Source: Pseudomonadota bacterium
GTDB taxonomy: Bacteria; Pseudomonadota; Gammaproteobacteria; Burkholderiales; Burkholderiaceae
Reading direction: 5' to 3'
Assembly (NCBI GenBank): GCA_963205525.1
Contig: CAUJJP010000212.1
Span: 1-14,367 of the forward strand
Length of the DNA: 14,367 bases
The translations under genes were made by a program, and so were the position numbers. Numbering within the stretch: the first letter of the stretch is position 1; each line of letters starts with the position of its first letter. Below, one piece after another: positions 340 through 14,367 of this stretch. The notes beneath the pieces were generated by a model, which did no database searches, was not told the origin of the DNA, and saw nothing but the letters and a program-made list of their open reading frames with translations.

Positions 340-3300
340 TCATCCCCGCTTGCCCAGCCGCGGCTCGATCAGCGCCAGCAGCCGTTCGCCCAGCCGGTCG
401 ATGGTGAAGGCTTCAAGGTACTGCTGGCGCGCTGCCCGGCCCATCGCTGCGCAGTGTGCCGGGTCCTGCATCAGCGCGGCGATGGCTTCGGCCAGCGCCC
501 GTGTGTCCTGCGGCGGTACCACCAAGCCGTCGATGCCGTGACGGATCATCTCGGGCACCCCGCCGACGGCGGAGGAAAGCACCGGCCTGCCCAGGGCCAT
601 CGCCTCGAGGATGGTTACCGGAAAGACTTCGTCGCGCGACGGGCACACCAGCAGATCGGCCTCCGCCAAGTGGCGCAGCGCCGCCTCGTGCGACAGCGAC
701 CCGAGGTGGCGCACGCAAGGCGTGCCTTGCAGCGTCGGCAGGATGCGCGCATGGAACTCGGGGTCGAGCACGCGCCCGATCAGTCGCACGTCGAGCCGAG
801 CCTGCATCTCGGCGGGCAACCGCGCTACGGCATCGAGCAGCAGGTCCTGACCCTTGCGCGGCTCCACGCTGCCGATGTGCACGATCGTGAAGCGCGCCGG
901 GACATGCTCGACGGCGCCCGGCACTTGCGGCTCCTGAGTGCCGTAGGGAATGACATGGAAGCGACCTCGATCGCCCAGGTCCTCGTACAGTGTTCGCGTG
1001 GCGGCGCAGGCGAAGACCACGTCGTCGGCGGCCGCTAGCGCTTCGATGATCGACGGGTTGGCCAGCGCCATCTCGCGGCCAGCCATCGATTCGTGCAGCA
1101 ACCACAGCACCGGCGTGCCCGAGGACTCGGCCACCTGCACCGAGGGCCAGGCGACGATGGTGTTGGCCAGGATGAGGTCGAAGGCGGCCATCAGCTTGGC
1201 CGTCTGCGCATCGGGTGCGCGCGCGATGGTGGCATCCACGATCACCGGGATGCCATGCGAGCGGTAGGCCGCGGCAAGCTCGCCGTCCAGCGGCGACATC
1301 ACGGTGACGAAGTGGCCGCGGGCGCGGAAATGCGCGGCCAGTTGCAGCAGCAGGATCGGCGCGCCGCTCAGGCTCAGGTCGTGACTGACGAGCAGGAGGT
1401 CGGCCGCCGCCAGCATCGCGTCGTCCTCGCGCGCGAGCTCCATACGGTAGGGCACATGGCCGGCGTGGTACAGGTGGGCCCGCATGTTTTCCGGGTACCA
1501 GGGGTCGCGCGAGAGGAAGTGGCCGAAGCGCTTGATGAGGTAGGTGTCGGCCTTGTCCTTGCGGCGCTCGCGCAGGTGGTCGGTGGCCTTCAGCGACAGG
1601 TGGCCAATGTGGCGCAGCTCGGCGAATGGCGTATAGATCATGGCGTAGCCGCGCTCGCGGATACGGCAGCACAGGTCGACGTCGGAATGCATGATCGGCG
1701 TGCGCTCGGCATCCCAGCCGCCGATCTCGTCGAACACCCGGCGCGGCATCAGCAGGCAGGCACCCGACAGCAGCGAGACATCGCGCTCCGACTGCGCAAG
1801 GTTGAAGTACACGCCGCTGTCCTTGGGCTGGGCGTGGAAGGCCGTGCCCACCAGGCCGCGCACGCCGGTCACCATGCCGGCGTACTGGAGGGTGTCGTTC
1901 TCGTAGAACAGCTTGGGCGACACCCCGCCGACGTTGCCGCGGCCGAAGACGCCCAGCATGTCCCCGAGCCAGCTGCCGTGGGTGGCCTCGACATCGTCGT
2001 TGAAGAACAGCAGGTAGTCGCCGTGCGCTGCCGCCGCGCCCGCGTTGCACTTCGCCGAAAAGTTGAACGGCTGGTCGTAGGCACACAGTCGCACAGCGTC
2101 GTCGCCGGCGTGGCGCTGCAGCAGTTCATTCCCGAGCGCCGAATGGGTGACGGCGACGATCTCGTACGGCCGATGGTCGGTGTGCCGCTGGATCAGGTCG
2201 ATGCAGTTGAAGAGGTTGCTGCGGTTGTCGGTGGGGATGACGATGGACACCAGGGGTCGCTGCGCCTCGTCGCGCGGCAGCCTGAAGCGCACGCGGTTGG
2301 CACGGGGCAGGGCCTCAGCCACGGCGTCGTAGCCGCGGCGGCGGCAGGCGTCCTGCAGCGCGGCGATGTTGGAAGTGCGCGCGAAATCCTTGCCGCCGCC
2401 GGCGGCCGAGCCCGGCAGCGTGCGCCAGTGGTACAACACCTTGGGCAGGTGGTGGATGCGGTCGGTGCGTTCGGTGATGCGCAGCGCCAGGTCGTAGTCC
2501 TGCGAGAAGTCGTAGGCCGAGCGGAAACCGCCCAGCTCGATCACCAGGTGGCGGCGGTAGACGCTCAAGTGCCCGGTATACATGCAGGCGAACAGCAGCT
2601 GCGGGCTCCAGTCGGGCTTGAAGAAGGGGTCGTGGTGCAGCGTGCTGCCGTCGGCCTGCTGCGTGATGCGGTCCTCGTCGCTGTAGACGAGGTCGGCATC
2701 GCGATGGCGGCCGAGCAGGGCCGCCACCTCGAGCAGCGCGTCGGGGTCGAGTTCGTCGTCGTTGTCCAGCAGCGCGACGAAGTCGCCGCTCGCCTGCGCC
2801 AGCGCGGCGTTCGAGGCTGCCGAGATGCCGCCGTTGCGGCGACTCCAGGTGACGACGATGCGCGGGTCGACCGTGGCCCAGCCGCGCAGCGCGCGGCGCG
2901 TGTCGGCCCGTGTCGAGGCGTCGTCGTGCAGGCACAGCTGCCAGTGCGGGTAGCTCTGCGCACGCACCGACTCGATGCAGCGCGCCAGCCACTGCGGGTC
3001 GACGTTGTAGACCGGCGTGACGATGGAGATCGTGGGCCGCTGCTCCAGGCTGTCCAGCAGGCGCCGTCGCACCTCGTCGTCCAGCGCTGGCCGCGCCGCC
3101 AGCCACTGCGCATAGGACGGATCGTGCACGACCTTCGGGCTCGGCGGCACCCCGGGCACGAAGGGACCGCCGCGCGCCAGGTCGTCGCGGATGCGTAGCG
3201 CCGTGGCCTTCGCGCCGTGGCGCCGCGCATGGGCCAGCGTGCGGCCAGCCAGTTTGGGCACACGCCGCAAGCCACGCGCCAGCCGTCGCACGGCGCGGTT

Positions 3301-4518
3301 CGCTGCGGCGGCCATGCCGTCGCGGCGCATGGCCATCAGTCCGCGCAGCCCGAGGTCGAACAAGCGTCCGCGCAGCGTGCCGTGCGGCAGCAGCCGGCTG
3401 CGCACGCGGCGCGTCTTCTCCAGCAGCTGCCAGCCCGATGTGGCGCGCATGGCGGCCATCTCGCCCTGCAGGGCTGCGATGCGCCGCTCCTGCCCCAACC
3501 ACTCGGCATCGTGCGCGGACTGGCGCAGCGCCAGCAGGTCCTCGAGGTGGTGAATGTGGTCGTCGCGGGCCTGCGCGAGCTGCTCCAGCCAGGCGACGCG
3601 GGCGACACGCTCGTCGAGCAGGATCTGCCGGTCGGCCAATTCGCGGGCATCGTGGGCGATTTGCTCGGCCGCCTGCTGCAGCGCAGCCTCCGCGGCCTGC
3701 GCCGAGGCGGCGGCGGTGGCCTGCACCGTCTGCAACTGGGCGTCCCGGCGGTTGCGGTAGGCCAGGATCACCGCGGGCGTGATGTCGGCCTGGTGCTTGT
3801 CGAGGATGCGCAGCGTAGCCTTGGCCATCGCATCGGCACTGGCGCGGTTGATCTGCTGTGCCTGATCCCATTGGTGGTAGCGCGCCGTCGCCGTGTCGAC
3901 ATGGTGGAAGGACTGGCCGCGTGCCAGTCGGATCAACAGATCCCAGTCCTCGTAGAGATCGAGGGATTCGTCGATGCCTCCGATCTCGCGCAGCCGCGCC
4001 GCGTCGATCAGGACGGTGTTGAAGGGGATGTAGTTGCCGACCAGAAGCTCAGGCCAGCTGAAATCCTTGGACAGCACCTGGCAGTCGTGCACCTCGAAGC
4101 GGCCTTGTTTCTCGGACCAGCTCGCAAAGGCCATCTCGGCGCCGCTGTAGGCCACGTCCACCGCCTGCGCCTGCGCCGCCTCGACCAGACCGCTCAGGTG
4201 ATTGGGCAACCACTCGTCGTCGTCGTCGAGAAACGCGATCCAGCGGCCTCGGGCACGGGCGATGCCGGCATTGGCGGCGCGCGCCCGGCCCTGATTGAGC
4301 GGCAGCGCGGCGTCGACCAGGGTCACTTCTCCCAGCAGCTCTTGCAGGTGCGGCAGATCGAGCGGTGCGCCGCCGTCGTTGACGAGCACGACCTCGATCG
4401 GCCGGTAAGTCTGCGCGGCGATACTGGCCAGCGCGGCTTCCAGCATGCGCGGACGGTCCCGGGTGCGCACGACGACGGAGACCAGGAGTGGCGTCGACCT
4501 TGGTTCGTGGCGATTCAT
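340..4518 (-). CDS. Giant multi-domain glycosyltransferase (GT2-coiled coil-GT2-GT2-GT4)
   Basis: Predicted cytoplasmic enzyme of 1392 residues adding several sugars to a surface glycan. Domains seen: GT2 at about 10-225 (DDDD at 98-101); an Ala/Gln/Glu-rich coiled coil at about 262-358; a basic amphipathic linker at about 361-435; a second GT2 at 495-735 (DNDD 585-588, SDEDR 613-617); a third GT2-like domain at 753-985 (NDD 840-842, DVDLCCR 946-952); and a GT4 domain at 1038-1385 with the E-x7-E motif (E1297, E1305) and GSVEPRKG at 1216-1223. GT2 enzymes invert and GT4 enzymes retain the anomeric centre, so at least two linkage types are possible. Start: ATG at 4518, whose ATGA overlaps the preceding gene's stop; ATG at 4524 would add two residues. 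The frame stays open upstream to 5256, but that part is a high-GC shadow of the neighbouring gene. Last gene of the minus operon. Acceptors and donors are unknown. Confidence 0.9.
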   Translation of the reverse strand: MNRHEPRSTPLLVSVVVRTRDRPRMLEAALASIAAQTYRPIEVVLVNDGGAPLDLPHLQELLGEVTLVDAALPLNQGRARAANAGIARARGRWIAFLDDDDEWLPNHLSGLVEAAQAQAVDVAYSGAEMAFASWSEKQGRFEVHDCQVLSKDFSWPELLVGNYIPFNTVLIDAARLREIGGIDESLDLYEDWDLLIRLARGQSFHHVDTATARYHQWDQAQQINRASADAMAKATLRILDKHQADITPAVILAYRNRRDAQLQTVQATAAASAQAAEAALQQAAEQIAHDARELADRQILLDERVARVAWLEQLAQARDDHIHHLEDLLALRQSAHDAEWLGQERRIAALQGEMAAMRATSGWQLLEKTRRVRSRLLPHGTLRGRLFDLGLRGLMAMRRDGMAAAANRAVRRLARGLRRVPKLAGRTLAHARRHGAKATALRIRDDLARGGPFVPGVPPSPKVVHDPSYAQWLAARPALDDEVRRRLLDSLEQRPTISIVTPVYNVDPQWLARCIESVRAQSYPHWQLCLHDDASTRADTRRALRGWATVDPRIVVTWSRRNGGISAASNAALAQASGDFVALLDNDDELDPDALLEVAALLGRHRDADLVYSDEDRITQQADGSTLHHDPFFKPDWSPQLLFACMYTGHLSVYRRHLVIELGGFRSAYDFSQDYDLALRITERTDRIHHLPKVLYHWRTLPGSAAGGGKDFARTSNIAALQDACRRRGYDAVAEALPRANRVRFRLPRDEAQRPLVSIVIPTDNRSNLFNCIDLIQRHTDHRPYEIVAVTHSALGNELLQRHAGDDAVRLCAYDQPFNFSAKCNAGAAAAHGDYLLFFNDDVEATHGSWLGDMLGVFGRGNVGGVSPKLFYENDTLQYAGMVTGVRGLVGTAFHAQPKDSGVYFNLAQSERDVSLLSGACLLMPRRVFDEIGGWDAERTPIMHSDVDLCCRIRERGYAMIYTPFAELRHIGHLSLKATDHLRERRKDKADTYLIKRFGHFLSRDPWYPENMRAHLYHAGHVPYRMELAREDDAMLAAADLLLVSHDLSLSGAPILLLQLAAHFRARGHFVTVMSPLDGELAAAYRSHGIPVIVDATIARAPDAQTAKLMAAFDLILANTIVAWPSVQVAESSGTPVLWLLHESMAGREMALANPSIIEALAAADDVVFACAATRTLYEDLGDRGRFHVIPYGTQEPQVPGAVEHVPARFTIVHIGSVEPRKGQDLLLDAVARLPAEMQARLDVRLIGRVLDPEFHARILPTLQGTPCVRHLGSLSHEAALRHLAEADLLVCPSRDEVFPVTILEAMALGRPVLSSAVGGVPEMIRHGIDGLVVPPQDTRALAEAIAALMQDPAHCAAMGRAARQQYLEAFTIDRLGERLLALIEPRLGKRG

Positions 4519-5681
4519 GTCCATCCGAGGGCCCGACGGATCACCGGCGCCTGCGTCGCGCAGGCAAACCGCTGCAGCGCCAGTTCGCGCGCCCGGGCCG
4601 CCATGGCTGCCCGGGCGCCGGGGGCGTCCAGCAGCGCCGCCAGGCGGCGCTCCCATTCGTGGGCGCGGGCTAGGACGCCATTGTGGCCGTCGACGATGCA
4701 GTCCACGTGGTTGGCGGTGGGTGAGGCGATGCTGACGGTGCCTACCGCAGCGGCCTCGAAGAACTTGAGCGGCGACTTGCAGTCGGCAAAGACGCTGGCC
4801 TGCAGGGGCATCAGGTTGACCTCGACCGATGCCACCCGGCGCTGCAGGTTGACCCAGTCGGTGAAGGGCGCGCGCAGCACCCGCTCGCCAAAGCGCGACC
4901 AGGACGCAGCGGGTTCCAGGTAGCCGACGGTCATCACGCGCAGCTCGGGCCGGCGTTCGAGCAGGGCCTCGAGCGCCGGCGCGACGATGGCGAAATCGAG
5001 CCGGTGCGAGGGCGAGCCGCTGAAATAGGCCAGCACGGGGCGGTCGTCGCCCGCGATGCCGGACGGCTGCTTCTCGGCCCACAGGCGGTCGGAAATCGTC
5101 AGCTGCTCGCGATTCATGAAATTGGGCACGACGGCCACCGGCTTGCCGCAAAATTCGCGCATGCGCTCGGCCAGGAAGGCGTTGGTTGTGATTCCACCAT
5201 CGCAAGCCTGCAGCGTGGCCCCCATGCGAGACACCATGCCGAACCAGTCGTCCCACACGCGCGGATCGTCGGCGTCCAGCCCCAGGGTGGACACCAGCAG
5301 CGGCACGTAGCGGGTATCGAAGACGAGGTCGTCGATGTCGAACAGCACCGGCTTGCCGCGGCGTCGGAACTGCGTGATCAGCTCGCCCAGCGCGTGCTCC
5401 CAGCCCGAGCGGCAGATCACCAGCACCTGGGCGCCGTCGGCGATCGCCTGGGCGTGGCCGAGGTCGTCGCGATGGAACCAGCTGGCCGAGCAGCCTCCTT
5501 CAGCATCGGCATTGAGCACCTGCGCCATGTTGTAGGCGCGGTAGCGAAAGCTGCTGTTGTTGGGCGCTTCGTAGTAGTAGGCCGCGCGCCGCGTGCCGCG
5601 CAAAAGCTGGCGCAAGCGATCGCCCAGCGGCAGCAGCCAGGGGTCGTGGTAGGGCTGCTGCGGCGTGCGCAGGGCGAACAT
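4515..5681 (-). CDS. GT-B fold glycosyltransferase (GT4-like)
   Basis: A 388-residue protein with the two-lobed layout of GT-B glycosyltransferases. Visible landmarks are YYYEAPNNSSFRYRAYNMAQ (35-54), an acidic FDIDDLVFD loop (114-122) common in this group, VAVVPNFMN (182-190), a second-lobe start at DRPVLAYFSGSPSH (213-226), and CKSPLKFFEAAAVGTVSIAS (301-320), which corresponds to the donor-binding region of GT4 enzymes. Only one Glu of the usual E-x7-E pair is obvious (E309). The ATG at 5681 overlaps the stop of the upstream gene as TGATG, and the TGA at 4515-4517 overlaps the next start as ATGA, so translation is probably coupled on both sides. No membrane segments are seen, so it presumably acts at the cytoplasmic face. 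Sugar specificity cannot be read from the sequence. Confidence 0.85.
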   Translation of the reverse strand: MFALRTPQQPYHDPWLLPLGDRLRQLLRGTRRAAYYYEAPNNSSFRYRAYNMAQVLNADAEGGCSASWFHRDDLGHAQAIADGAQVLVICRSGWEHALGELITQFRRRGKPVLFDIDDLVFDTRYVPLLVSTLGLDADDPRVWDDWFGMVSRMGATLQACDGGITTNAFLAERMREFCGKPVAVVPNFMNREQLTISDRLWAEKQPSGIAGDDRPVLAYFSGSPSHRLDFAIVAPALEALLERRPELRVMTVGYLEPAASWSRFGERVLRAPFTDWVNLQRRVASVEVNLMPLQASVFADCKSPLKFFEAAAVGTVSIASPTANHVDCIVDGHNGVLARAHEWERRLAALLDAPGARAAMAARARELALQRFACATQAPVIRRALGWT

Positions 5682-6970
5682 CAGGGTTCCGAGGCCAGTC
5701 GCTCGATAACGGGGCGCAGCGATTGCGCCCAGTCGCGTGACAGGCCGTTGGCCTGGAAGTGGGCCTGCCGCCGCGCCGCGTCGGCCACCAGCGCCACGCC
5801 ATCACGCAGCCCATCGAGCAAGGGCTGCAACGCGGCGTCGCGCAGGATCAGGTTGCGTGACCAGGCGGAGAGGTCCTGCTTCAGTCCGTGGCGCGTGCTG
5901 ACGACCACCGCGCCGCTGGCCACCAGGTCCAGCGGCGGGTAGCTGGGGTGTGGCGTGTCCATCAGGCTCAGGCCGAGGTCGGTGCCGCCGATCAGCGCGG
6001 CGTAGTCCGACCAGTCGAGGTTTTCCAGCCGCTGCGGCCGCACGCCGCCGGCCAGCACCAACACGGGGATGTGGCTGCCGACGAAGACGATGTCCCATTG
6101 CTGCGGGTCGATCACGCCCTGCAGCAGCGCCTGCTCGATCACCTCCAGCCCGAGGTGAAAGAGGTTGCGTGGGTTGTGTGGCCGGGCATAGAAGACGAAG
6201 CGGCGGCGATCGCCGGCCACGCGAGGGCGGGGGTAGAAGACGCTGGGCGGAAAGGCCGGCTCGAAGCTGATCGCCCGGGTGTCGAAGTGGGCCAGCCCGC
6301 TGGCCGCGAAATGGGCGCGCAGCAGTTCGGTGTTGACGACGAAGCGCAGGTCGGTGCGCCGCAGCAGGGCCTCGCAGCGCAGGCGGTCGTCGCCCTGCGG
6401 GTAGAACATGCGCTCGTCTTCCTGCAGCAGGTAGGCCACGCGGCTGGCGGGCACCGCGGCCAGCGTGGCGGCGGTGGTCCACCAGCTGCTGGTGAGCAGC
6501 AGCTCGTCGTCGAAGAGGTCGAGTTCGGTATCCGGTGCGCTCACCGGGGCGAAGCGGAACTGCGACTCGCGCTGCAACGCAAGCCCGTAGACCTGCAGAA
6601 GATGGTCGAGGTTGGCGGGCTGCGGCGGCTCGGTGCGCGTGATCACACGCAGATCGGCGCCGCGGCGGTTGGCCAGCAGCGTGGCGAGGATGAGCGCCGT
6701 GCCCACGCCGCCGAACAGACTGCCGCGGCCGATGCTGTCGGTGATCAGGCTCACGCGCCGCCGCCCCTGCGCGGGCGTGGCAAAGGAGCGCAGTGGCGTC
6801 AGCGCTGCAAAGCGCTCGGCCAGCAGCGCGCTGGCCGAGCGCGGCCCACTGGGCGCAGGGGCCCGCCGACGGCGCCACTCATGCAGCACCCGCGCCAGCG
6901 TTGCTCGCCAGCCGAAGCGGCGACTGTAGTTCAGCAGGCGGGACAGGTTGCTGGGCGTGGCTTCAGGCAC
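5681..6970 (-). CDS. WsaF-like glycosyltransferase (possible rhamnosyltransferase)
   Basis: A 429-residue protein resembling the WsaF group of GT-B enzymes; the founding member is a rhamnosyltransferase of S-layer glycan assembly. Supporting motifs are AYLLQEDERMFYPQGDD (179-195), which corresponds to the family's 'QDxExxFYPxG' signature, FVFYARPHNPRNLFHLGLE (258-276) in the second lobe, and LGLSLMDTPHPSYPPLDLVA (332-351) followed by SGAVVVST, the nucleotide-sugar side. The start is GTG at 6970 because no ATG, GTG or TTG lies in frame over the 65 bases up to the upstream gene; the Shine-Dalgarno is poor. The only clear break in the minus operon precedes this gene. The N-terminal 70 residues are basic and may be a membrane or partner contact. 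Family assignment is from remembered motifs; rhamnose as donor is an inference. Confidence 0.75.
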   Translation of the reverse strand: MPEATPSNLSRLLNYSRRFGWRATLARVLHEWRRRRAPAPSGPRSASALLAERFAALTPLRSFATPAQGRRRVSLITDSIGRGSLFGGVGTALILATLLANRRGADLRVITRTEPPQPANLDHLLQVYGLALQRESQFRFAPVSAPDTELDLFDDELLLTSSWWTTAATLAAVPASRVAYLLQEDERMFYPQGDDRLRCEALLRRTDLRFVVNTELLRAHFAASGLAHFDTRAISFEPAFPPSVFYPRPRVAGDRRRFVFYARPHNPRNLFHLGLEVIEQALLQGVIDPQQWDIVFVGSHIPVLVLAGGVRPQRLENLDWSDYAALIGGTDLGLSLMDTPHPSYPPLDLVASGAVVVSTRHGLKQDLSAWSRNLILRDAALQPLLDGLRDGVALVADAARRQAHFQANGLSRDWAQSLRPVIERLASEP

Positions 6971-7035
6971 GGAACTCAGGCGGCAGCGGCGACGGTTGTG
7001 CCGGATGCGGTGCGGCGACAGGCAAACGGCGAATT
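6971..7035 (-). other. 65-base gap inside the minus-strand operon
   Basis: This is the only non-overlapping junction of the minus operon. On the minus strand a TAAAAT hexamer, which includes the GT2 stop codon, resembles a -10 box, but no TTGACA-like -35 box lies at a suitable distance. An internal promoter is therefore possible but not supported. Confidence 0.3.
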
Positions 7036-7953
7036 TTAGGGGGCCGTCGGCCGGCCGACGTCGGCGGGCCGCGGACCGTCGACGCCTTGCCAGCCATCAA
7101 CCAGACCCCGCCCCATCATGCGCAGCCGCGCCCATCGCCCCGACGCCAGCATGCCGAAGTAGAGCAGCAGCGACAGCAGTTGCCGCGCATCGGCGCGCTT
7201 CCATGCCGCCGTGGCGTGCGGGCACCGACGCAGCAGCAGCCCGTTGCGCCAGATGTAGTAGTAGCGAAACGGCTGATGCAGCGCCAAGTGGCGCCAGCGC
7301 CCGAACCAGACGCGGATCTGTCGCTGCCCCAGCCGATGCCGCAGGCGCGCCCCCGGCACGCCGATCAGCCGCCAGCCGCGCCAGGCCGCGCGCAGGCACC
7401 ACTCGGTGTCGACCTTGTCGATGAACAGTTCCTCGGCCATCGGCCCGATGTCTTCCCACGCGGCGCGCGGGATCAGCGTCCCCGAGGCGATCAGCAGATC
7501 GCAGTCGATCCAGCGCTCGGCCGCAGCGGGCGCGATGGCGACATAGCGGCCATCACGAAAGCGCACGAAGCCCTCGCTGCCTCCCGCAGGGTCGACGATC
7601 AGCGGCCCGGCCGCCGCCACGCGCAGGCCCTGCGCGGCGGCGTCATCCACCACCCGGCGCATCTGCGCCACCATGTCAGGCGCCGGCAGGCTGTCCTGGT
7701 CGAGCAGCAGCACGAACCGCGCGCCGCCCTCGAATGCCGCCTGCGCGCCGAGGTTCTGCGCGCGCGCCACGCCTTCGTTGCGGCCCAGCCGGATCAGCCG
7801 CGCCGGCGCCGGCACCCGGGGCGGCGCGGGGCTCGCGTTGTCGACGACGACGATGGCCTGCACCTGCGGCGCCAGCGCCGCCAGCAGTTGCGCCAGCGCT
7901 TCGGATTCGGGGTGGTAGCTCACCACCACGGCGGCGACGCCGGGCGGGTTCAC
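7036..7953 (-). CDS. GT2 glycosyltransferase, rhamnosyltransferase-like
   Basis: A 305-residue GT-A enzyme of the group that includes O-antigen rhamnosyltransferases. It opens with AAVVVSYHPE (7-16), followed by IVVVDNAS (34-41), the metal-binding LLLDQDS (82-88), an acceptor-side FIDKVDTEWCLRA (177-189), and HQPFRYYYIWRN (226-237). The FIDxVDxEWCLRA string and the C-terminal YYxxRN region are typical of L-rhamnosyltransferases. A hydrophobic stretch near 258-270 could associate with the membrane. The start is GTG at 7953, which overlaps the vapC stop as GTGA; earlier in-frame starts would read far into vapC. The stop is TAA at 7036-7038. It sits directly behind a toxin-antitoxin pair and heads the glycosyltransferase part of the operon. 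dTDP-rhamnose as donor is likely but not proven. Confidence 0.85.
   Translation of the reverse strand: MNPPGVAAVVVSYHPESEALAQLLAALAPQVQAIVVVDNASPAPPRVPAPARLIRLGRNEGVARAQNLGAQAAFEGGARFVLLLDQDSLPAPDMVAQMRRVVDDAAAQGLRVAAAGPLIVDPAGGSEGFVRFRDGRYVAIAPAAAERWIDCDLLIASGTLIPRAAWEDIGPMAEELFIDKVDTEWCLRAAWRGWRLIGVPGARLRHRLGQRQIRVWFGRWRHLALHQPFRYYYIWRNGLLLRRCPHATAAWKRADARQLLSLLLYFGMLASGRWARLRMMGRGLVDGWQGVDGPRPADVGRPTAP
7045..7065. repeat. Overlapping perfect palindromes at the end of the GT2 gene
   Basis: CGTCGGCCGGCCGACG (7045-7060) is its own reverse complement, and GCCGACGTCGGC (7054-7065) is a second palindrome sharing seven bases with it. They lie in the last codons of the GT2 gene, 7-27 bases before its stop. 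In RNA the first could form a 6-bp stem with a CCGG loop. The minus-strand transcript continues CCCCCTAAAATT, not a U-run, so a classical terminator is not supported; pausing, RNA-end protection or chance in GC-rich DNA are the alternatives. Confidence 0.4.
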
Positions 7954-8327
7954 ACCGGCAGCACGATGTCCCCGTAGGCGGCCAGGGCCGCATCGGCCGT
8001 CAGCAGCCGCAGGGGTTCGGCCAGCGCTTGTGCCACGAGCAGCCGGTCGAACGGGTCGTTGTGGTGCGGGGCCAGTTGGGTCACGCCCGCGGTGTGCACG
8101 GCACGCACCGGCAGTTCGACGAATCCGCTGACGTCGATGGCCGTCACCAGCTCGGCAGGATCGGCCCTCAGCTTGCCCAGCCGGACCTTGATGGCGATCT
8201 CCCAAATCGAAGCCGCCGACACGTGGACTTCATCGGCGGCTTCGATGATGCGGCGGGTCGCCGGCTTCAGCAGCGGTGAGGCCGCCACCGCCCACAGGAA
8301 GACGTGGGTGTCCAGCAGCAGCCGCAT
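7950..8327 (-). CDS. vapC: PIN-domain toxin of a type II toxin-antitoxin pair (VapC family)
   Basis: A 125-residue PIN-domain protein, a typical VapC length. VapC toxins are Mg-dependent ribonucleases that cut tRNA, rRNA or mRNA and arrest growth. The expected acidic residues are present: D6 in LLLDTHVFLW, E43 in SAASIWEIAIK, D94 in HHNDPFDRLLVAQA, and D112 in LLTADAAL, so the active site appears intact. The ATG at 8327 overlaps the antitoxin stop by one base (TGATG), the standard coupled arrangement. The 3' end overlaps the GT2 start as GTGA, which is unusual because it couples a toxin gene to a glycan gene. The HxDPFDRLLIAQA variant belongs to the PIN group commonly paired with Phd/YefM-like antitoxins. 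Confidence 0.92.
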   Translation of the reverse strand: MRLLLDTHVFLWAVAASPLLKPATRRIIEAADEVHVSAASIWEIAIKVRLGKLRADPAELVTAIDVSGFVELPVRAVHTAGVTQLAPHHNDPFDRLLVAQALAEPLRLLTADAALAAYGDIVLPV

Positions 8328-8563
8328 CAGGTTCCTTCGAAGGCGGCCAGCATTTCGGCGGGCAGCGGCGCGTCGAAGTCGGTCGCGATAATCAGCTTGC
8401 CTTTCAGCACGCCGAAGCGGATCGGACGCTTGGGCTGTTCGAGCCGCGTGATGCGGGCCAGCGGTTTGCCGTTGCGGCTGACGACCACGTCCTCGCCTGC
8501 GGCGGCCTTGTCGACCAGTTGCGACAAGCGGGTCTTGGCATCGTAGATGTTGACGGTGTCCAT
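8327..8563 (-). CDS. vapB: Phd/YefM-type antitoxin
   Basis: A 78-residue antitoxin. The N-terminal half (VNIYDAKTRLSQLVDKAAAG, 4-23, then EDVVVSRNGKPLARI) is the Phd/YefM DNA-binding and dimerisation fold. The C-terminal part (RFGVLKGKLII with DFDAPLPAEML) is the usual toxin-neutralising tail that wraps the PIN active site. Members of this group bind their own promoter and repress it together with the toxin, so the operon here may be autoregulated. The ATG at 8563 is the first gene after the divergent intergenic region, and its Shine-Dalgarno is weak. The symbol vapB is used by partnership with VapC; by fold it is Phd/YefM rather than the AbrB or RHH VapB types. Confidence 0.9.
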   Translation of the reverse strand: MDTVNIYDAKTRLSQLVDKAAAGEDVVVSRNGKPLARITRLEQPKRPIRFGVLKGKLIIATDFDAPLPAEMLAAFEGT

Positions 8564-8593
8564 GGTGCCCGGTGTGGTCGAGAATCTTGGTCA

Positions 8594-8622
8594 AGTCTAG
8601 TCTGGCGCGGCTGCGACAGCAA
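8594..8622 (-). promoter_or_regulatory. Candidate sigma-70 promoter of the toxin-antitoxin/glycosyltransferase operon
   Basis: Read on the minus strand, TTGCTG (8622-8617) and TAGACT (8599-8594) are separated by 17 bases, with the antitoxin ATG 30 bases beyond. The -10 matches the consensus in 4 of 6 positions and the -35 in 3 of 6. The adjoining AGTCTAGTCT direct repeat (8594-8603 on the plus strand) could be an antitoxin operator half-site, but no clear palindrome is seen. Confidence 0.35.
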
Positions 8623-8655
8623 GCCACTGCCATGTCCCGCCCGTTCCCGCGCCGA

Positions 8656-8661
8656 TATCAT
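8656..8661 (+). promoter_or_regulatory. Candidate -10 box of the original wzm leader
   Basis: TATCAT within GCCGATATCATCGCGG matches the -10 consensus at 5 of 6 positions and lies 108 bases before the ATG of the broken wzm copy. No good -35 element stands 16-18 bases upstream. If functional, it now drives the inserted genes rather than the intact wzm. Confidence 0.25.
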
Positions 8662-8763
8662 CGCGGCCCCGGTGGCGCGGCCTGCCGGGCCTGGGCTCCT
8701 CCGGCGGCGACCGTGTTCGGTTCCACCTCGCTCGCCCCTACCTCTTTCAATGCGCCGCACCGC

Positions 8764-8838
8764 ATGAATCCCTCGTCCTGGTGGCTTTCCTACGCTTCGC
8801 GCAGCGCGAGGTGAGCAACCGTTTCGCCGGCTCGCTGC
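8764..8838 (+). pseudogene. Truncated, frameshifted 5' fragment of wzm
   Basis: The ATG at 8764 opens a sequence nearly identical to the start of the intact wzm at 10517. From 8776 to 8838 it matches 10529-10592 with a single missing C after base 8786 (CTTTCC against CTCTTCC). The loss shifts the frame so that translation ends at TGA 8812-8814 after 16 residues (MNPSSWWLSYASRSAR). The first 12 bases differ from the intact gene at five positions (7 of 12 match), and the DNA after 8838 is unrelated low-GC sequence. It is a dead gene end left by insertion or recombination at the wzm start, and it marks the left boundary of the insert. Confidence 0.85.
8776..8838 (+). repeat. Direct repeat, left copy (63 bases)
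   Basis: Matches 10529-10592 at 63 of 64 aligned positions, the only difference being a one-base gap. Both copies are in the same orientation and bracket the low-GC insert. They are part of a coding sequence (wzm codons 5-26), not a mobile-element end. Confidence 0.95.
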
Positions 8839-8843
8839 CGGGA

Positions 8844-8959
8844 TGTCTCCGACAGGTGCTCTAGCGGACACGAATCGCCATCTTCAGCGAATTATTGCGG
8901 TAACTTTGGACGGTATAGGATTTGCTAGAATTCCAAACTCGTGAATATGGGGGAAATCG
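8844..8959 (+). promoter_or_regulatory. Leader and candidate extended -10 promoter of the inserted deacetylase gene
   Basis: After the wzm fragment the sequence turns A/T-rich. TGCTAGAAT (8923-8931) is a good extended -10 element (TGn plus TAGAAT, 5 of 6), giving a start near 8938, about 20 bases before the GTG start codon. No -35 at normal spacing is seen; TTGGAC (8906-8911) is only 14 bases away. Inverted arms TTTGGA (8905-8910) and TCCAAA (8932-8937) flank the -10 box and could be an operator. GGGGGAAA (8949-8956) is a clear Shine-Dalgarno sequence and fixes the start of the next gene. Confidence 0.45.
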
Positions 8960-9791
8960 GTGGTAGCTCGAACGAACATCCGGGTCCTGACCTATCACTC
9001 GCAATCTAATCAAGGTGACCATTACACTACGAATGATCACGAGGCCTTTCGTGAGGATCTGCGGGTGCTCTCTAAGGAAGGATTTAGGGTAATCACCGCA
9101 CTTGCCCTGGTTGACCATCTATTGGCAGCAAGATTGCACGCATTGCCATCGAAGACTATCATCATCACGATGGACGATGGGCCTATCTACGATGTGGTCG
9201 ATGATCCGTCGGGCTTGCCCGGCGAGCGACGGTCTATGCTCAGAATCGCACGGGAACATCGACGAAATCTCTTTGGTATTCCTCTCACGCGCAGTAGTGT
9301 CCGAACCACTTCCTTCGTTATCGCATGCGAAAAGGCTCGCAAGGATATTGAGGATGGAGGTCCAAGCTATCTGGATGGAAACTGGTGGGTCGAGGCGCAG
9401 CGCACGGGGTACGTCGATATCGGCACACATAGTTGGAACCACGTACACCCTCTTGTCGAGGAGGTGCGAGCGCAGACGCCGAATTTATGTGAGGCGTTTC
9501 ATCTGATCGACAATGATCAAGAAGCAGAGCGCCAAATTGTTCAGGCCGCGCGCAAGATTCGAAGCGTGACGCACAGTCCGGCGGCTTCTCTCTTCGCATA
9601 TCCCTATGGACAGAGAGGCGCCTTCCTCACCGAAGATTTTTTTGCCGCGACAGAAAGAAATTATGGCTGCGTTCACGACCGACGGATTGCCGGTCGTTCT
9701 GGATACCAAGCGCTGGGAAATTCCACGATACGTTTGTAACTATCATTGGAAGAGCCCGGATGATCTGGCGCGTTTGCTATACGCTGCATAG
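8960..9791 (+). pseudogene. Polysaccharide deacetylase (NodB/CE4 family), frameshifted at a T7 run
   Basis: A NodB-like carbohydrate esterase that would remove N- or O-acetyl groups from a glycan. Motif 1 is TMDDGP (D72 base, D73 metal), motif 2 is THSWNHVHP (H157, H161), and motif 3 is FAYPYG (212-217), so catalytic residues are kept. Read straight from the GTG at 8960 the protein ends at 9739 (259 residues) in a tail that looks unrelated to the family. The family-like ending (AAFTTDG, RWEIPRYVCNYHW, SPDDLARLL) lies in the +1 frame, ending at TAG 9789-9791. Removing one T from the run at 9637-9643 joins the frames as EDFLPRQKEIMAAFTTDG and gives 276 residues. The cause may be a real slippage mutation, phase variation, or a sequencing error. 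A strong Shine-Dalgarno (8949-8956) supports the GTG start. Base composition and codons are poorer in GC than the flanks. Confidence 0.75.
9637..9643 (+). repeat. T7 homopolymer at the frameshift point
   Basis: Seven consecutive T residues lie inside the deacetylase gene, where removing one T (or adding two) restores a family-like reading frame. Homopolymers of this kind slip in replication or transcription and are also a common site of sequencing error. Confidence 0.7.
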
Positions 9792-9794
9792 TCG

Positions 9795-10337
9795 ATGACT
9801 GGAAACCTTTTTAGGCGCTTGGCCCGAAGATTCCTGTCGGCCGTTCCAGTTGCTGTACGGTGCCGGGAGACCAGTGAGCTGCCACCCAACGCGGACGAGT
9901 TGTTCCGCAAGGTGTTCAGGGTCGCGGGACCGGTCGCAGGCAGGCACTTTATACTGGAGTGCGTCGAACCAACGACGCAGGGTTGCACTCAGTTGCTAGG
10001 TTATGTCAATTTCAGGGCGCATAAGACTGGCTATTTGGCCGGTGGATTGGTCGTGGACGCATGGCGCTATCGCAATCTCGATCGGCCTGTCCAAGCGGAG
10101 ATCAAGAGGCATGGCGGCATGGCAGAGTGGCTCATGCGCCATGCGGTCCGGGCCGTGGCGCCGTGCACCGCGGTCTACGCATATATCGGCGACAAAGCTT
10201 CCGAAACCGTCAATGCGCGAGTCGGTTTCCGGCGTACGGCGACGCCATACCTGTTCGTGCTCAGTGAAAGCGCCGCTAATGCGCAGTTGGAACTAGATGC
10301 ATTGACAGAGAGCGTCGCCTCGTTAGGGCCCTTCTGA
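9795..10337 (+). CDS. Putative GNAT-family acyltransferase
   Basis: A 180-residue protein, tentatively an N-acyltransferase. Residues 80-152 read like a GNAT core: a beta strand AGGLVVDAWRYRNL (82-95), a helix GMAEWLMRHAVRAV (108-121), AVYAYIGDKAS (126-136), and VNARVGFRRTATPYL (139-153), where the Asn and the VGFRRT strand resemble the acetyl-CoA-side end of the fold. The ATG at 9795 is three bases after the deacetylase TAG, so the two genes were probably co-translated; one could remove acetyl groups and the other add a different acyl group at the same sugar position. The N-terminus is basic (FRRLARRF) with no signal peptide. Composition is intermediate between the low-GC deacetylase and the high-GC flanks. 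The function is an inference from partial motifs. Confidence 0.5.
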   Translation: MTGNLFRRLARRFLSAVPVAVRCRETSELPPNADELFRKVFRVAGPVAGRHFILECVEPTTQGCTQLLGYVNFRAHKTGYLAGGLVVDAWRYRNLDRPVQAEIKRHGGMAEWLMRHAVRAVAPCTAVYAYIGDKASETVNARVGFRRTATPYLFVLSESAANAQLELDALTESVASLGPF

Positions 10338-10516
10338 TGCATGGACGTAAGACCTGCGCGGCCTCACGGGCTAGCGTGGTCCTCGCCGTACCTCGCACTG
10401 CGTATTAGCTGATTCCCAAGCCCGTTCAACATAACGATCACCAGAAGCAGCCGCCTTGGGCTTGACCCTTGTGTCGATCCTATTGCGTTGCCGTCCCTGC
10501 CGAATTCCCCGCCTAC
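10338..10516 (+). other. Intergenic right end of the insert, leader of intact wzm
   Basis: These 179 bases between the acyltransferase stop and the wzm ATG hold no gene I can support. CAAGCCC and GGGCTTG form a weak 7-bp inverted repeat with a long loop. TTGACC at 10462-10467 resembles a -35 box, but the only -10-like hexamer (TATTGC, 10481-10486) is 13 bases away, too close. There is no resemblance to the leader of the broken wzm copy beyond the first few codons. Confidence 0.5.
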
Positions 10517-11293
10517 ATGAACCAGACCTCCTGGTGGCTCTTCCTACGCTTCGCGCAGCGCGAGGTGAGCAACCGTTTCGCCGGCTCGCTGCTTGGCAGC
10601 CTGTGGGCGCTGGTGCATCCGCTGGCGCTGTTGCTGATCTACAGCTTCGTCTTCACCACGGTGCTGCGGGTGCGGCCGGTGGCCGAGACTAGCGTGCCCT
10701 TCCTGGTCTTCCTTGCCGTGGCGCTGTGGCCGTGGCTGGCCTTCCAGGAGGCGGTGATGCGCGGCACCGGGGCCGTGGTGGCCAACGGGGCGCTGGTCAA
10801 GAAGGTGCCGTTCGCGCACGAGGTGGTGGTGCATGCCGCGGTCGCCTCCAGCTTCGCGGTGCAGCTCGGCGGCTACGTCGTGGTCATCGCCTTCATGGTG
10901 TTCACCGGCCAGCCGCTGCACCTGGCGGGGCTCGGGCTGGTGCTGCTGTGCCTGCTCGGGCTGGCGGCACTGGCCACTGGCCTGGCGCTGATGCTGGGTG
11001 CGCTGCAGGTCTTCGTGCGCGACGTCGAGCAGGGTCTGGCGCCGGTGATGGGCATCGTGTTCTACCTTTGTCCGATTCTCTACCCGGTGGCGATGGTGCC
11101 CGAGTGGATGCGCGGCTGGATGCTGCTGAACCCGGTGGCGGTGCTGATCGAGGCCTGCCGCGAGGCGCTGATCGAGGGTCGCGCCTGGCCCGCCGCCACC
11201 GAGGGTCTGGCGCTGCTGGCCTGTGCGGCGGTGCTGCTGCTGGGCCGCATGGTCTTTCATCGCCTGTCGCCGCACTTCGAGGAGGAGCTGTGA
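10517..11293 (+). CDS. wzm: Polysaccharide ABC transporter permease (Wzm)
   Basis: A 258-residue ABC-2 type inner-membrane permease that would export lipid-linked O-polysaccharide with Wzt. Six hydrophobic segments are seen at about 28-50, 60-80, 105-130, 137-163, 172-193 and 228-247, the usual count for Wzm/TagG proteins. LLGSLWALVHPL (25-36), LQVFVRDVEQ (163-172) and FYLCPILYPV (182-191) are conserved positions of the family. The start is ATG 10517 (MNQTSWWLFLRFAQRE), giving the normal family N-terminus; an upstream in-frame GTG-type start at 10469 would only add intergenic-looking residues. It ends in a GTGA overlap with wzt. Its first codons are duplicated at 8764, so this copy may have a replaced or recombined 5' end and a changed promoter. 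Confidence 0.93.
   Translation: MNQTSWWLFLRFAQREVSNRFAGSLLGSLWALVHPLALLLIYSFVFTTVLRVRPVAETSVPFLVFLAVALWPWLAFQEAVMRGTGAVVANGALVKKVPFAHEVVVHAAVASSFAVQLGGYVVVIAFMVFTGQPLHLAGLGLVLLCLLGLAALATGLALMLGALQVFVRDVEQGLAPVMGIVFYLCPILYPVAMVPEWMRGWMLLNPVAVLIEACREALIEGRAWPAATEGLALLACAAVLLLGRMVFHRLSPHFEEEL
10529..10592 (+). repeat. Direct repeat, right copy (64 bases)
   Basis: Matches 8776-8838 except for one extra C, which keeps the wzm frame open. It marks the right boundary of the low-GC insert; bases after 10592 continue wzm, while bases after 8838 do not. Confidence 0.95.
11279..11287 (+). promoter_or_regulatory. Strong Shine-Dalgarno for wzt
   Basis: GAGGAGGAG ends three bases before the GTG start of wzt and lies in the last wzm codons (EEEL). 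It decides the GTG at 11290 as the start and supports coupled translation with wzm. Confidence 0.75.
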
Positions 11294-12507
11294 CGGAGAC
11301 AGTGCATCCCGCGGGGCTCGAGCCGCCGCTGATCTCGCTGCGCGAGGTCGGCAAGGTGTATCCGGTGCACGGCGGCGCGGCGAGCAGGATCGCTGCGCTG
11401 TGGGCCAAGCTGCGCGGCGTGCCGCACGCGGCTTCCGAGTTCCGTGCGCTCGACGGCATCAGCTTCGACGTTCGCCGTGGTGAGTCGACGGCGCTTGTCG
11501 GCGTCAACGGCGCCGGCAAGTCGACGCTGCTGAAGGTCATCGCGGGCGTGGCCAAGGCCAGCAGCGGCACGGTCGCGATTCATGGCCGTGTCGGCGCGCT
11601 GCTCGAACTGGGCGCGGGCTTTCACCCCGAATACACCGGCAGCGAGAACATCGCCCTGGCCTGTGCGCTGATGGGCCTGTCGCCGGCGCGCACGCGCGAG
11701 CACCAGGAGGCCATCGTCGCCTTCGCCGACATCGGCGCGCACATCGACCAGCCGGTCAAGCACTACTCCTCGGGCATGGTGATCCGGCTGGGCTTTGCCA
11801 TCGCCACCGCGCTCACGCCCGACGTGCTCATCACCGACGAGGTGCTTTCGGTCGGCGACGAGTCCTTCCAGCGCAAGTGCATCGCCTGGATGGAGAACTA
11901 CCTGAGCCAGGGCGGCACGCTGCTGCTGTGCTCGCACAGCATGTACCACGTGCAGAAGCTGTGCCGGCAGGCGATCTGGATCGAGGCCGGCCGCGCGCGC
12001 CTGATCGGCGACGCCTTCGAGGTCACCCGCCAGTACCTGGCCTGGCACGAAGAACGAACCGCGCAGTCGCGCAAGCTGCAGCCCGGCGCCGTGGCCGCCG
12101 GTGGCGGCAGCATCTACCAGGTGCGCAGCATGCGGCTCAACGACATGCACTCGGAAGAGCCGGTGCTGGTTCCCGAAGGCGGCACGCTGGTCGTCAGCGG
12201 CAGCGTCTACTCGCCCGACGACCGCGTCCCGCAGATCGCCGTGGGCGTGGTCAAGCTCGACGGCACGCCGGTGGCCGGCTGCTACTCGGAGATGGACGGC
12301 TTCACGCTGCACCGCCAGGAGCCGCAGCTCTACACCTACACGCTGACGCTACCCCGCCTGCCGCTGCTGCCGGGGGCCTATGTCGCGCGCAGCCATGCGA
12401 TGGACCCCGAGGGCATGCGCATGTTCGATCACGTCGAACTGCGCTTCGACGTGGCCGGCGTCTCGCGCGAGACCGGCATCTGCAAGCTCGAGCACGCGTG
12501 GTCGTGA
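11290..12507 (+). CDS. wzt: Polysaccharide ABC transporter ATPase with glycan-binding domain (Wzt)
   Basis: A 405-residue ATPase partner of Wzm. The nucleotide-binding domain carries Walker A GVNGAGKST (71-79), the signature YSSGMVIRLGFA (159-170), Walker B DVLITDEVLSVGD (178-190), and the switch His216 in CSHSM. Residues from about 275 onwards form an extra C-terminal domain (SIYQVRSMRLND, 274-285, to the end) as in Wzt proteins, whose beta-sandwich recognises the modified end of the finished O-polysaccharide and so couples termination to export. The presence of this domain suggests a chain cap exists, though no capping methyltransferase or kinase is seen here. GTG start at 11290 overlaps the wzm stop; the TGA at 12505-12507 overlaps the next GTG, again as GTGA. 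Confidence 0.95.
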   Translation: MTETVHPAGLEPPLISLREVGKVYPVHGGAASRIAALWAKLRGVPHAASEFRALDGISFDVRRGESTALVGVNGAGKSTLLKVIAGVAKASSGTVAIHGRVGALLELGAGFHPEYTGSENIALACALMGLSPARTREHQEAIVAFADIGAHIDQPVKHYSSGMVIRLGFAIATALTPDVLITDEVLSVGDESFQRKCIAWMENYLSQGGTLLLCSHSMYHVQKLCRQAIWIEAGRARLIGDAFEVTRQYLAWHEERTAQSRKLQPGAVAAGGGSIYQVRSMRLNDMHSEEPVLVPEGGTLVVSGSVYSPDDRVPQIAVGVVKLDGTPVAGCYSEMDGFTLHRQEPQLYTYTLTLPRLPLLPGAYVARSHAMDPEGMRMFDHVELRFDVAGVSRETGICKLEHAWS

Positions 12508-13955
12508 CGGCCGCTGTCGCTGCACGCGCGATCCACGTCGTTCCGCCGGGCGGCGGCGGCGTCGAGCGCTGCGTGCGCGACATCGTGTACCAGCGCCCGC
12601 AGGACCTCATCCTGCACACCGCCGATGCGCAGTGCGTGCTCGAGCGGCCGGCGCCGGCCGGCGCCGATGCTCAGGCGCGCTTCGTCCCGCTTGCCCGTGC
12701 CGACCTACTGGGCTGGGCGGCCGCGGGCGGCCTTGGCGCCCCGCTGATCCTGCATGCGCACAGCACGGTGGCCGCGGTGCGCGATCTGTGCGAGCGCCTG
12801 GCCGCGGCCACCGCGGCGCCGCGCCTCCTGACGCTGCACGACATCTGGTTCGCCGATCCGGCGCTGCCGGCGAGCGAACGTGCCGAGCGCCTGGCCTTCG
12901 TGCGCAGCGCCGCGCGACGCTGTGCGCCCAGCGACTTCATCGTCGAGCGCGCGCGCGCCGCGCTGGGGGATCAGGCCGACACCGCGCCGGTGACGCGCTG
13001 GCCGCTGGCCGCCGCGCCCTTCGAACCGGGTTGCGAGGCGCAGGTCCGGGCGCTCTCGCCGGCCGCCGACCAGGCCTGCGGCGCGCGCGGCTTCGCCATC
13101 GCCGTCATCGGCGCCATCGGTGCGCACAAGGGCCTGGCGGCGCTGGAGGCACTGGCCGCGCGCTTGCCGGCGACGCTGCGCGTGGTCGTGCTCGGCTACA
13201 CCGGGGAGCAGTTGCGCCAGGGCTGGACGGCGGACGGTCACATCTGGGTGCACGGCATCTTCCATCCCCGGCAGTTGCCGAGCCTGGCGCAGCACTACGG
13301 GGCGCGCCTGGCGCTTTTCCCGCCCGGCATGCCCGAGAGCCATTGCTATGCCCTGGGCGACGCCTGGATGAGCGGCCTGCCGGTCCTCGCCCCGGACCAC
13401 GGCGCGCTTGCCGAGCGCATCCGCTGCCATGGCGGCGGCACGCTCTACGATCCGGCGATCGATGTCGACGACTGGTGCGCGCTCGTCGTTGCGCAGGCTG
13501 CGGCGGCGCGCCGGCATCCGAGCGCGCTGCCCCTGTTGCGACCGCTGCCCACGATGGAGGAGATGATGAGCCGGCTCGAGGCCTTGTACGCCGAACTCCC
13601 GCCCAGCGGCGCGGCACGTCCGGCCGACGACGACGGCGTGCAGCGCCTGGCGCAGAAGCACCTGGACTCGCAGTTCCTGCGCCGGGAGGTGACCGACCTC
13701 CAGCAGCAACTGGAGCGCTGCGAGCGCGAACGGGATGCACTGCGCGAGCAGACGAACGAGCGGCAGGCCGCCGGGCAGCAGCACGCCCAGGCCCTTGCCG
13801 AGTGCGAACGCAGGCTTGCCGCCACGACGCAGGAGCGCGAGGCCTTCGCTGCCGCCTACCTCGGCCTGCGCGGGCGGCTGCAGCGCCTGGTGGGCTGGCT
13901 CCCCGATCCGCTGCGGCGTGCACTGGTGGCGCTGGCCCGGCGGCTGCGAGGCTGA
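12504..13955 (+). CDS. GT4-type glycosyltransferase with C-terminal coiled coil
   Basis: A 483-residue GT-B enzyme. IHVVPPGGGGVERCVRDI (10-27) is the N-lobe nucleotide loop of GT4 enzymes, and LHDIWF (111-116) is a family-like strand. The second lobe begins at IAVIGAIGAHKG (199-210), and GIFHPRQLPSLA (251-262) plus FPPGMPESHCYALGDAWMSG (272-291) form the donor site; the second acidic residue of E-x7-E is an Asp (E278, D286). From about 380 to 450 a Gln/Glu/Arg heptad-like region forms a coiled coil, and the last 30 residues (LGLRGRLQRLVGWLPDPLRR and on) are basic and amphipathic. Such a tail could bind the membrane. The start is GTG 12504, overlapping wzt; GTG 12498 would add two residues. 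Donor and acceptor are unknown. Confidence 0.85.
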   Translation: MTAAVAARAIHVVPPGGGGVERCVRDIVYQRPQDLILHTADAQCVLERPAPAGADAQARFVPLARADLLGWAAAGGLGAPLILHAHSTVAAVRDLCERLAAATAAPRLLTLHDIWFADPALPASERAERLAFVRSAARRCAPSDFIVERARAALGDQADTAPVTRWPLAAAPFEPGCEAQVRALSPAADQACGARGFAIAVIGAIGAHKGLAALEALAARLPATLRVVVLGYTGEQLRQGWTADGHIWVHGIFHPRQLPSLAQHYGARLALFPPGMPESHCYALGDAWMSGLPVLAPDHGALAERIRCHGGGTLYDPAIDVDDWCALVVAQAAAARRHPSALPLLRPLPTMEEMMSRLEALYAELPPSGAARPADDDGVQRLAQKHLDSQFLRREVTDLQQQLERCERERDALREQTNERQAAGQQHAQALAECERRLAATTQEREAFAAAYLGLRGRLQRLVGWLPDPLRRALVALARRLRG

Positions 13956-13959
13956 GGCG

Positions 13960-14367
13960 ATGAGCGAAGCCCCCCCCTCCCTCAACCCCGCCCAGATGGA
14001 GGCCGTGCACCATCTCGCCGGCCCCTGCCTGGTGCTGGCGGGGGCCGGGTCGGGCAAGACGCGGGTCATCGTGCACAAGGTCGCGCGGCTGCTGCAGGCG
14101 GGGGTCGCGCCCGGGCAGATCGCCGCCATCACCTTCACCAACAAGGCCGCCGCCGAGATGCGCGAGCGGGCCAAGGCGCTGGTCGGTCCGCGCGCGGCGC
14201 GCGAACTGGTGCTGTGCACCTTCCATGCGCTGGGCGTGCGCATGCTGCGCGAGGACGGGGAGCGCGTCGGGCTCAAGCCCAACTTCAGCATCCTCGACGC
14301 CGACGACGTGCTGGGCGTGATCCGCGACGCCGGCGGCTGCACCGACAACGCGCAGGCGCGGCGCTGG
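13960..14367 (+). CDS. rep: ATP-dependent DNA helicase Rep, N-terminal fragment
   Basis: The first 136 residues of a superfamily 1A helicase, cut by the window end. Seen in order are the Q motif region LNPAQMEAV (8-16), Walker A AGAGSGKT (27-34), motif Ia ITFTNKAAAEMRER (57-70) and motif Ib TFHALGVR (87-94). LVLAGAGSGKTRVI and the later KPNFSILDADD resemble Rep more than UvrD. Rep moves 3'-5' and removes proteins ahead of forks, working with PriA in restart. The ATG at 13960 follows the glycosyltransferase stop by four bases, with GAGG just upstream, so rep is probably reached by read-through from the polysaccharide operon. Full length would be about 670 residues. Confidence 0.92.
   Translation, partial: MSEAPPSLNPAQMEAVHHLAGPCLVLAGAGSGKTRVIVHKVARLLQAGVAPGQIAAITFTNKAAAEMRERAKALVGPRAARELVLCTFHALGVRMLREDGERVGLKPNFSILDADDVLGVIRDAGGCTDNAQARRW

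What the first reader, a model, noticed from the sequence alone, without database searches (positions are those of the whole stretch)
8764..10592. Low-GC cassette inserted at the start of wzm, bracketed by a 64-base duplication of the gene
Bases 8776-8838 and 10529-10592 are the same sequence but for one base, in direct orientation. The right copy is inside intact wzm; the left is a dead end. Between them the composition drops: by hand count, 8881-8940 is 40% GC and 9061-9120 is 53%, against 68% at 11521-11580. The repeat is ordinary wzm coding sequence, which points to recombination through short homology (for example a single crossover with a circular donor carrying a wzm 5' fragment) rather than transposition. 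The codons just before the repeat differ between copies, consistent with two alleles. This may be a route for swapping glycan-modifying cargo into ABC-exported O-antigen loci.
Basis: partly seen in the sequence, partly recalled or inferred. Interest (0 to 1): 0.75.

Follow-up and report, generated by a model that had tools for sequence, protein, structure and literature searches.

The report
Foreign two-gene insert splitting wzm's start
A bacterium related to Rubrivivax appears to have gained two foreign genes, probably for modifying sugars, inside the start of a surface-sugar exporter gene, leaving a dead scrap of the old start behind; it is a clear but fairly ordinary case of gene acquisition.

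Summary
Bases 8776-8838 and 10529-10592 are a direct repeat (63 and 64 nt, one missing base; 52 nt identical, against at most 17 in 50 simulated windows). The DNA between (8839-10528) is 55% GC; the flanks are 70-72%. The deacetylase was found in 0 of 81 genomes of that genus.

The cargo is a NodB-type deacetylase, frameshifted here though an intact relative exists, and a GNAT-fold acyltransferase. Their relatives lie together or within about 1 kb in 11 of 14 other loci, in varied settings.

The insert's right end brings an in-register wzm start (ATGAACCAGACC). I infer a donor in which these genes preceded a wzm, with a homologous joint in wzm and an irregular left joint. No recurrence was seen: 0 of 32 other wzm loci show a second wzm start. 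No reads and no donor locus could be examined.

The parts
8327..8563 (-). Phd/YefM-type antitoxin gene; marks the resident left flank
   Evidence: Pfam PF02604, E 6.5e-11; region 7089-8842 is 93.8% identical to L001
8564..8763 (+). original wzm leader, now cut off from intact wzm
   Evidence: continuous with the wzm start in L001 and L002; 70% GC
8764..8838 (+). dead 5' remnant of resident wzm, 75 nt (left repeat 8776-8838)
   Evidence: ATGAATCCCTCG plus 63 nt of wzm lacking one base; stop after 16 codons
8839..10528 (+). foreign insert, 1690 nt
   Evidence: 55.4% GC; no significant DNA match in L001-L034 (best 16 nt, E 0.59); no match in plasmid or phage records
8960..9739 (+). NodB-type (CE4) polysaccharide deacetylase, frameshifted near its 3' end at or near the T run 9637-9643; the family match goes on in another frame
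   Evidence: Pfam PF01522; D72, D73, H157, H161 invariant in 26 relatives; intact 276-aa relative P0001; family matches in two frames; T run
9795..10337 (+). GNAT-fold acyltransferase (180 aa), no Pfam family
10338..10516 (+). insert-borne region upstream of wzm, its new leader
   Evidence: 59.8% GC; does not follow the resident leader; no promoter or terminator consensus found in 8500-10650
10517..10528 (+). insert-supplied wzm start codons (MNQT)
   Evidence: in register with, but different from, the resident start; among 72 other wzm relatives printed, 1 (P0051) also begins MNQT
10529..10592 (+). right copy of the repeat, inside intact wzm
10517..11293 (+). intact wzm, ABC-2 type glycan export permease
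   Evidence: Pfam PF01061, E 9.8e-17; 96% identical to L001
11290..12507 (+). wzt, ATP-binding subunit
   Evidence: Pfam PF00005; best NCBIfam models are teichoic-acid and galactan exporters, all below their cut-offs

Best explanation
A resident wzm gene received about 1.7 kb of foreign DNA by recombination anchored in wzm homology. The donor DNA most likely read X - deacetylase - GNAT acyltransferase - wzm', the two genes lying just before another wzm. At the right end, donor and resident wzm were joined in register within the conserved first codons, giving a hybrid wzm whose first four codons and leader are foreign and whose remainder is resident. At the left end, the donor was joined irregularly 75 nt into resident wzm, leaving a dead stub on the old leader. 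Because resident nt 13-75 now occur twice and look like one allele, the event either involved two resident copies (sister chromosomes, or a switch of replication template) or used a donor circle that carried the same stretch. Shown: the repeat, the empty site in two relatives, foreign composition, no deacetylase found in the genus, and the in-register foreign start. Inferred: the donor layout, a single event, the molecular pathway, and the function (removing N-acetyl groups from an exported glycan and putting another acyl group on).
For: L001 and L002 have leader and wzm contiguous. Both flanks track L001 alike (93.8% and 94.6%), so only the middle is new. The deacetylase profile matched 0 of 81 genus genomes (the same profile did match), and a single-sequence search gave one weak partial match in 399 family genomes and none in G001-G004. 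The insert's last 12 nt are an in-register wzm start. Both repeat copies share three states absent from L001. Relatives of the two cargo genes lie together or within about 1 kb in 11 of 14 other loci, and directly downstream of wzm-wzt in L005 and L008. PMC3240628 (passages) describes both one-ended events (homology at one end, irregular joint at the other) and single crossovers that left duplications of 109-950 bp.
Against: No donor locus was found in which these genes directly precede a wzm; in L005 and L008 they follow wzt. The left joint cannot be checked for microhomology without the donor. One-ended events, as described in PMC3240628, generally delete resident DNA, which is not seen here. 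The MNQT match of P0051 is a weak hint. The window's genome is not held, so reads and other copies could not be examined.
Confidence: 0.68

Rival explanations
1. Campbell-type single crossover: a small circular molecule (or a linear fragment that closed on itself) carrying the two genes and a short wzm 5' piece recombined through about 63 nt of wzm. This overlaps with the second branch of the best explanation.
For: The order leader, stub, insert, new start, repeat, wzm is what this predicts. PMC3240628 (passages) reports duplications of 109-950 bp in 14 sequenced clones, ascribed to this route.
Against: It needs a donor with different codons 2-4 but 52 identical nt after them, and very short homology. 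No relative of the insert was found in plasmid or phage records.
Confidence: 0.27
2. Assembly artefact: reads from two strains or organisms were joined wrongly at the 52-nt identical stretch.
For: No whole genome is held for the window; 52 nt is within the range of short-read k-mers (recalled); one frameshift lies in a T run.
Against: The stub-to-insert junction would still need a source, since swapping pieces at the repeat cannot create it. Near-identical cargo proteins occur on other contigs (P0001 on 3, P0027 on 1), though that does not test the junctions. The cluster P0039 begins MNQT but is represented by the window's own protein, so it is no independent support.
Confidence: 0.08
3. Transposon-like insertion with an unusually long target-site duplication.
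For: Direct repeats flank the insert.
Against: No transposase or integrase family in the two insert genes or ten further ORFs there; the duplicated stretch is ordinary wzm coding sequence; the insert ends in a wzm start in register, which a transposon would match only by chance.
Confidence: 0.04
4. The 5' end of wzm is a recurrent site where glycan-modifying cassettes are exchanged.
For: Related proteins at 75% and 63% identity (P0002, P0029) each have a longest contig of 1772 nt, about cassette size; the glycosyltransferase block left of 7089 also differs from L001.
Against: 0 of 32 wzm loci show a second wzm start; contig lengths may reflect fragmented assemblies; most of the deacetylase loci found without regard to wzm are away from it (11 of 12).
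Confidence: 0.07

Closest known systems
Homology-facilitated illegitimate recombination (PMC3240628; passages read)
   Same: Foreign DNA anchored by homology at one end and joined irregularly at the other.
   Different: Generally deletes resident DNA; here 63-64 nt are duplicated instead, so I do not file this case as a member, only as working like it.
Single-crossover integration with partial duplication of the target gene (same paper; passages read)
   Same: Insert plus direct repeat of part of the target gene.
   Different: Reported duplications were 109-950 bp with a lacZ plasmid construct; a circular donor is not shown here.
Horizontally variable lps locus with wzm/wzt in Xanthomonas oryzae (PMC524487; passages read)
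   Same: A predicted acetylase gene and wzm/wzt in a locus of atypical composition that varies between strains.
   Different: There the cluster as a whole is foreign and insertion sequences lie in it; here a small insert splits the start of wzm itself.
NodB-NodA pair with the NodI/NodJ exporter (recalled)
   Same: A NodB-type deacetylase and an N-acyltransferase beside an ABC-2 type exporter.
   Different: The GNAT-fold protein and its 11 relatives matched no NodA model in Pfam; resemblance of logic only.

Membership tests
Insertion by recombination anchored in wzm homology | Relatives lack the insert and have a single wzm start on the same leader | tested here: met
   L001 and L002; L004 also has one wzm start but lacks the antitoxin-leader segment
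Insertion by recombination anchored in wzm homology | Insert ends in wzm sequence in register at the homologous joint | tested here: met
   ATGAACCAGACC directly before the repeat, same spacing as the resident ATG
Homology-facilitated illegitimate recombination | Short microhomology (3-10 bp) at the irregular joint | not testable with these tools
   donor sequence beyond the left joint unknown
Homology-facilitated illegitimate recombination | Loss of resident DNA at the joint | tested here: not met
   against L001, no leader or wzm sequence is missing apart from one base in the stub; 63-64 nt are duplicated
Single-crossover integration of a circle | Direct repeat of the homologous segment at both ends | tested here: met
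Single-crossover integration of a circle | Existence of the circular donor | tested here: inconclusive
   no match in plasmid or phage collections by DNA or protein
Transposon | Transposase or integrase gene in the insert | tested here: not met
   none in Pfam for the two insert genes or ten further ORFs in and next to the insert (one weak HemY_N match below its cut-off)
CE4/NodB deacetylase family | Catalytic Asp-Asp and His-x-x-x-His residues (motif recalled) | tested here: met
   D72, D73, H157, H161 invariant in 26 relatives; present in the window before the frameshift; Pfam PF01522
GNAT acyltransferase superfamily | GNAT fold | tested here: met

The most novel reading that the evidence does not exclude
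The conserved first codons of wzm act as a repeatedly used entry point through which deacetylase-acyltransferase pairs are swapped into ABC-exported O-antigen loci, each entry replacing the leader and start of wzm and so also resetting its expression.
Probability: 0.07. Interest if true: 0.6.

Novelty: new member of a known kind. Interest (0 to 1): 0.36.

Why it matters
It is a legible record of how a surface-glycan locus can gain cargo without a recognisable transposase: the old gene start is kept as a fossil, the empty site is known, and the insert brings both the cargo and a new start for the exporter gene. It also points to a gene pair (NodB-type deacetylase plus GNAT-fold acyltransferase) that stays together in most of the loci examined, in different settings, and may exchange acyl groups on glycans.

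Tried and rejected
RNA families and tRNAs as insertion targets: none in the window. Deacetylase relatives in viral contigs, plasmids and phages: none; insert DNA in plasmids and phages: none; PHROGs, 3 proteins at E 0.01: none. Promoter and terminator consensus in 8500-10650: none. Ten further ORFs in and next to the insert: one weak HemY_N match below its cut-off. NodA as relative of the acyltransferase: no Pfam match in 12 members.

Second wzm start elsewhere: 32 loci tested on one strand within the sequence held, some with little sequence upstream; 8 of the 32 gave one short hit (15-40 nt), none resembling the window's 64-nt repeat, which the same search found as a control. L023 and L031 (wzm start not held) and L035 (brought in by a weak deacetylase match) were left out.

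Synteny count: the class search also gave two weak matches (E 2.6e-17 and 5.1e-11), left out. The 14 loci are L005, L008 and the 12 strong genomes. Without a partner: L051, L062 and L061 (contig ends right after the deacetylase). L059 has the partner about 1 kb away and is counted as having it. L005 and L008 were found through wzm, so they do not show how often the pair sits by wzm. I did not check whether any two of the 14 come from one genome. Stretches were 15 kb (L045), 11.4 kb (L061) and 20 kb (others).

Wzm starts: I printed 73 relatives (P0039-P0111) of 120 listed and 1071 found; P0039 is the window's own. Literature searches: seen as listings only; passages were read in two papers. Nothing in the listings appeared to describe this insert or pair, which does not prove that none exists.

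Full report
What was checked. The repeat is real: 8776-8838 (63 nt) and 10529-10592 (64 nt) differ by one missing base, with 52 identical nt. In 50 first-order Markov simulations of the window the longest exact repeat was at most 17 nt. The stretch between, 8839-10528, is 55.4% GC against 70.2% left and 72.1% right of it. The left copy reads 16 codons and stops, so it is a dead remnant.

Empty site. A genome scan with wzm gave 34 loci; the closest is L001, Rubrivivax sp. SCN 71-131, 96% identical in wzm. L001 aligns to the window at 93.8% over 7089-8842 and 94.6% over 10529-14367, and not in between. In L001 the leader runs straight into the wzm start, and no second start is present in the 20.8 kb held; L002 shows the same at about 79% identity. 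L004 (wzm 85%) also has a single start but no antitoxin-leader segment. In the genus of L001, 3 of 81 genomes have this wzm at E 1e-60 (G001, G003 and G002, the genomes of L001, L004 and L002), and 0 of 81 match the deacetylase profile, which did match. In 399 genomes of the family, a single-sequence search gave one weak partial match.

The pair elsewhere. A profile search found the deacetylase in 8 of 399 genomes of the order and 6 of 369 of the class; 12 of these 14 are strong matches. Together with L005 and L008, an acyltransferase match lies next to it or within about 1 kb in 11 of 14 loci, in both relative orientations. The exceptions are L051, L061 (contig end) and L062. L005 and L008 carry the pair directly downstream of wzm-wzt, but they were found through wzm. 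Of the 12 strong genomes found without regard to wzm, only L062, which lacks the partner, has wzm/wzt in the stretch fetched. Other neighbours include MBOAT acyltransferases (L048, L052) and, in L047, a pyrophosphatase and a phosphofructokinase. These relatives are 30-38% identical to the window's deacetylase; closer ones at 75% and 55% (P0002, P0003) are known to me only from contigs of up to 2.6 kb.

How it arose. The 12 nt before the right repeat, ATGAACCAGACC, hold an ATG at the same distance as the resident start, so the insert ends in the start of a wzm rather than in random DNA. Of 72 other wzm relatives printed, one (P0051, 71% identical) also begins MNQT; this is a weak hint. The repeated stretch looks like one allele in both copies: they share three states that differ from L001. 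So the right joint looks like recombination between a donor wzm and resident wzm in the first codons, while the left joint is irregular. That one allele now occurs twice is explained by two resident copies taking part, or by a circle that already carried the stretch. PMC3240628 (passages) describes both one-ended events and single crossovers that leave duplications; its one-ended events generally delete resident DNA, which speaks against a plain case of that kind here. The data do not decide between the two.

Function. Inference only: removal of N-acetyl groups from an exported glycan and re-acylation by the GNAT-fold protein. With the frameshift, if real, the deacetylase may be inactive in this strain. 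The insert also replaces the leader and first four codons of wzm, so expression of the exporter may have changed; no promoter consensus was found.

Verdict. Probably a single insertion of foreign glycan-modifying genes into the start of wzm; a new member of a known kind of event. Recurrence, which would make it more interesting, was not seen in 32 other wzm loci.

Noticed in passing
window 340-7088: The glycosyltransferase block left of about 7089 does not align with L001 apart from about 73-74% over 4649-5684, while 7089 onward is 94%: a second, sharp boundary in the same locus.
   Followed up: partly
window 12600-13200: Identity to L001 dips to 84-92% within the 527-codon frame 12380-13963, which has no Pfam, NCBIfam or PHROGs match.
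   Followed up: no
window 8327-8563: A Phd/YefM-type antitoxin gene sits between the glycosyltransferases and wzm, in a stretch conserved in L001; L004 lacks this segment.
   Followed up: no
L045 3353-5622: One genome has two deacetylase matches flanking one acyltransferase match; the first deacetylase and the acyltransferase share one open frame.
   Followed up: no
L059 11343-12495: One genome has two acyltransferase matches in a row about 1 kb from a deacetylase.
   Followed up: no
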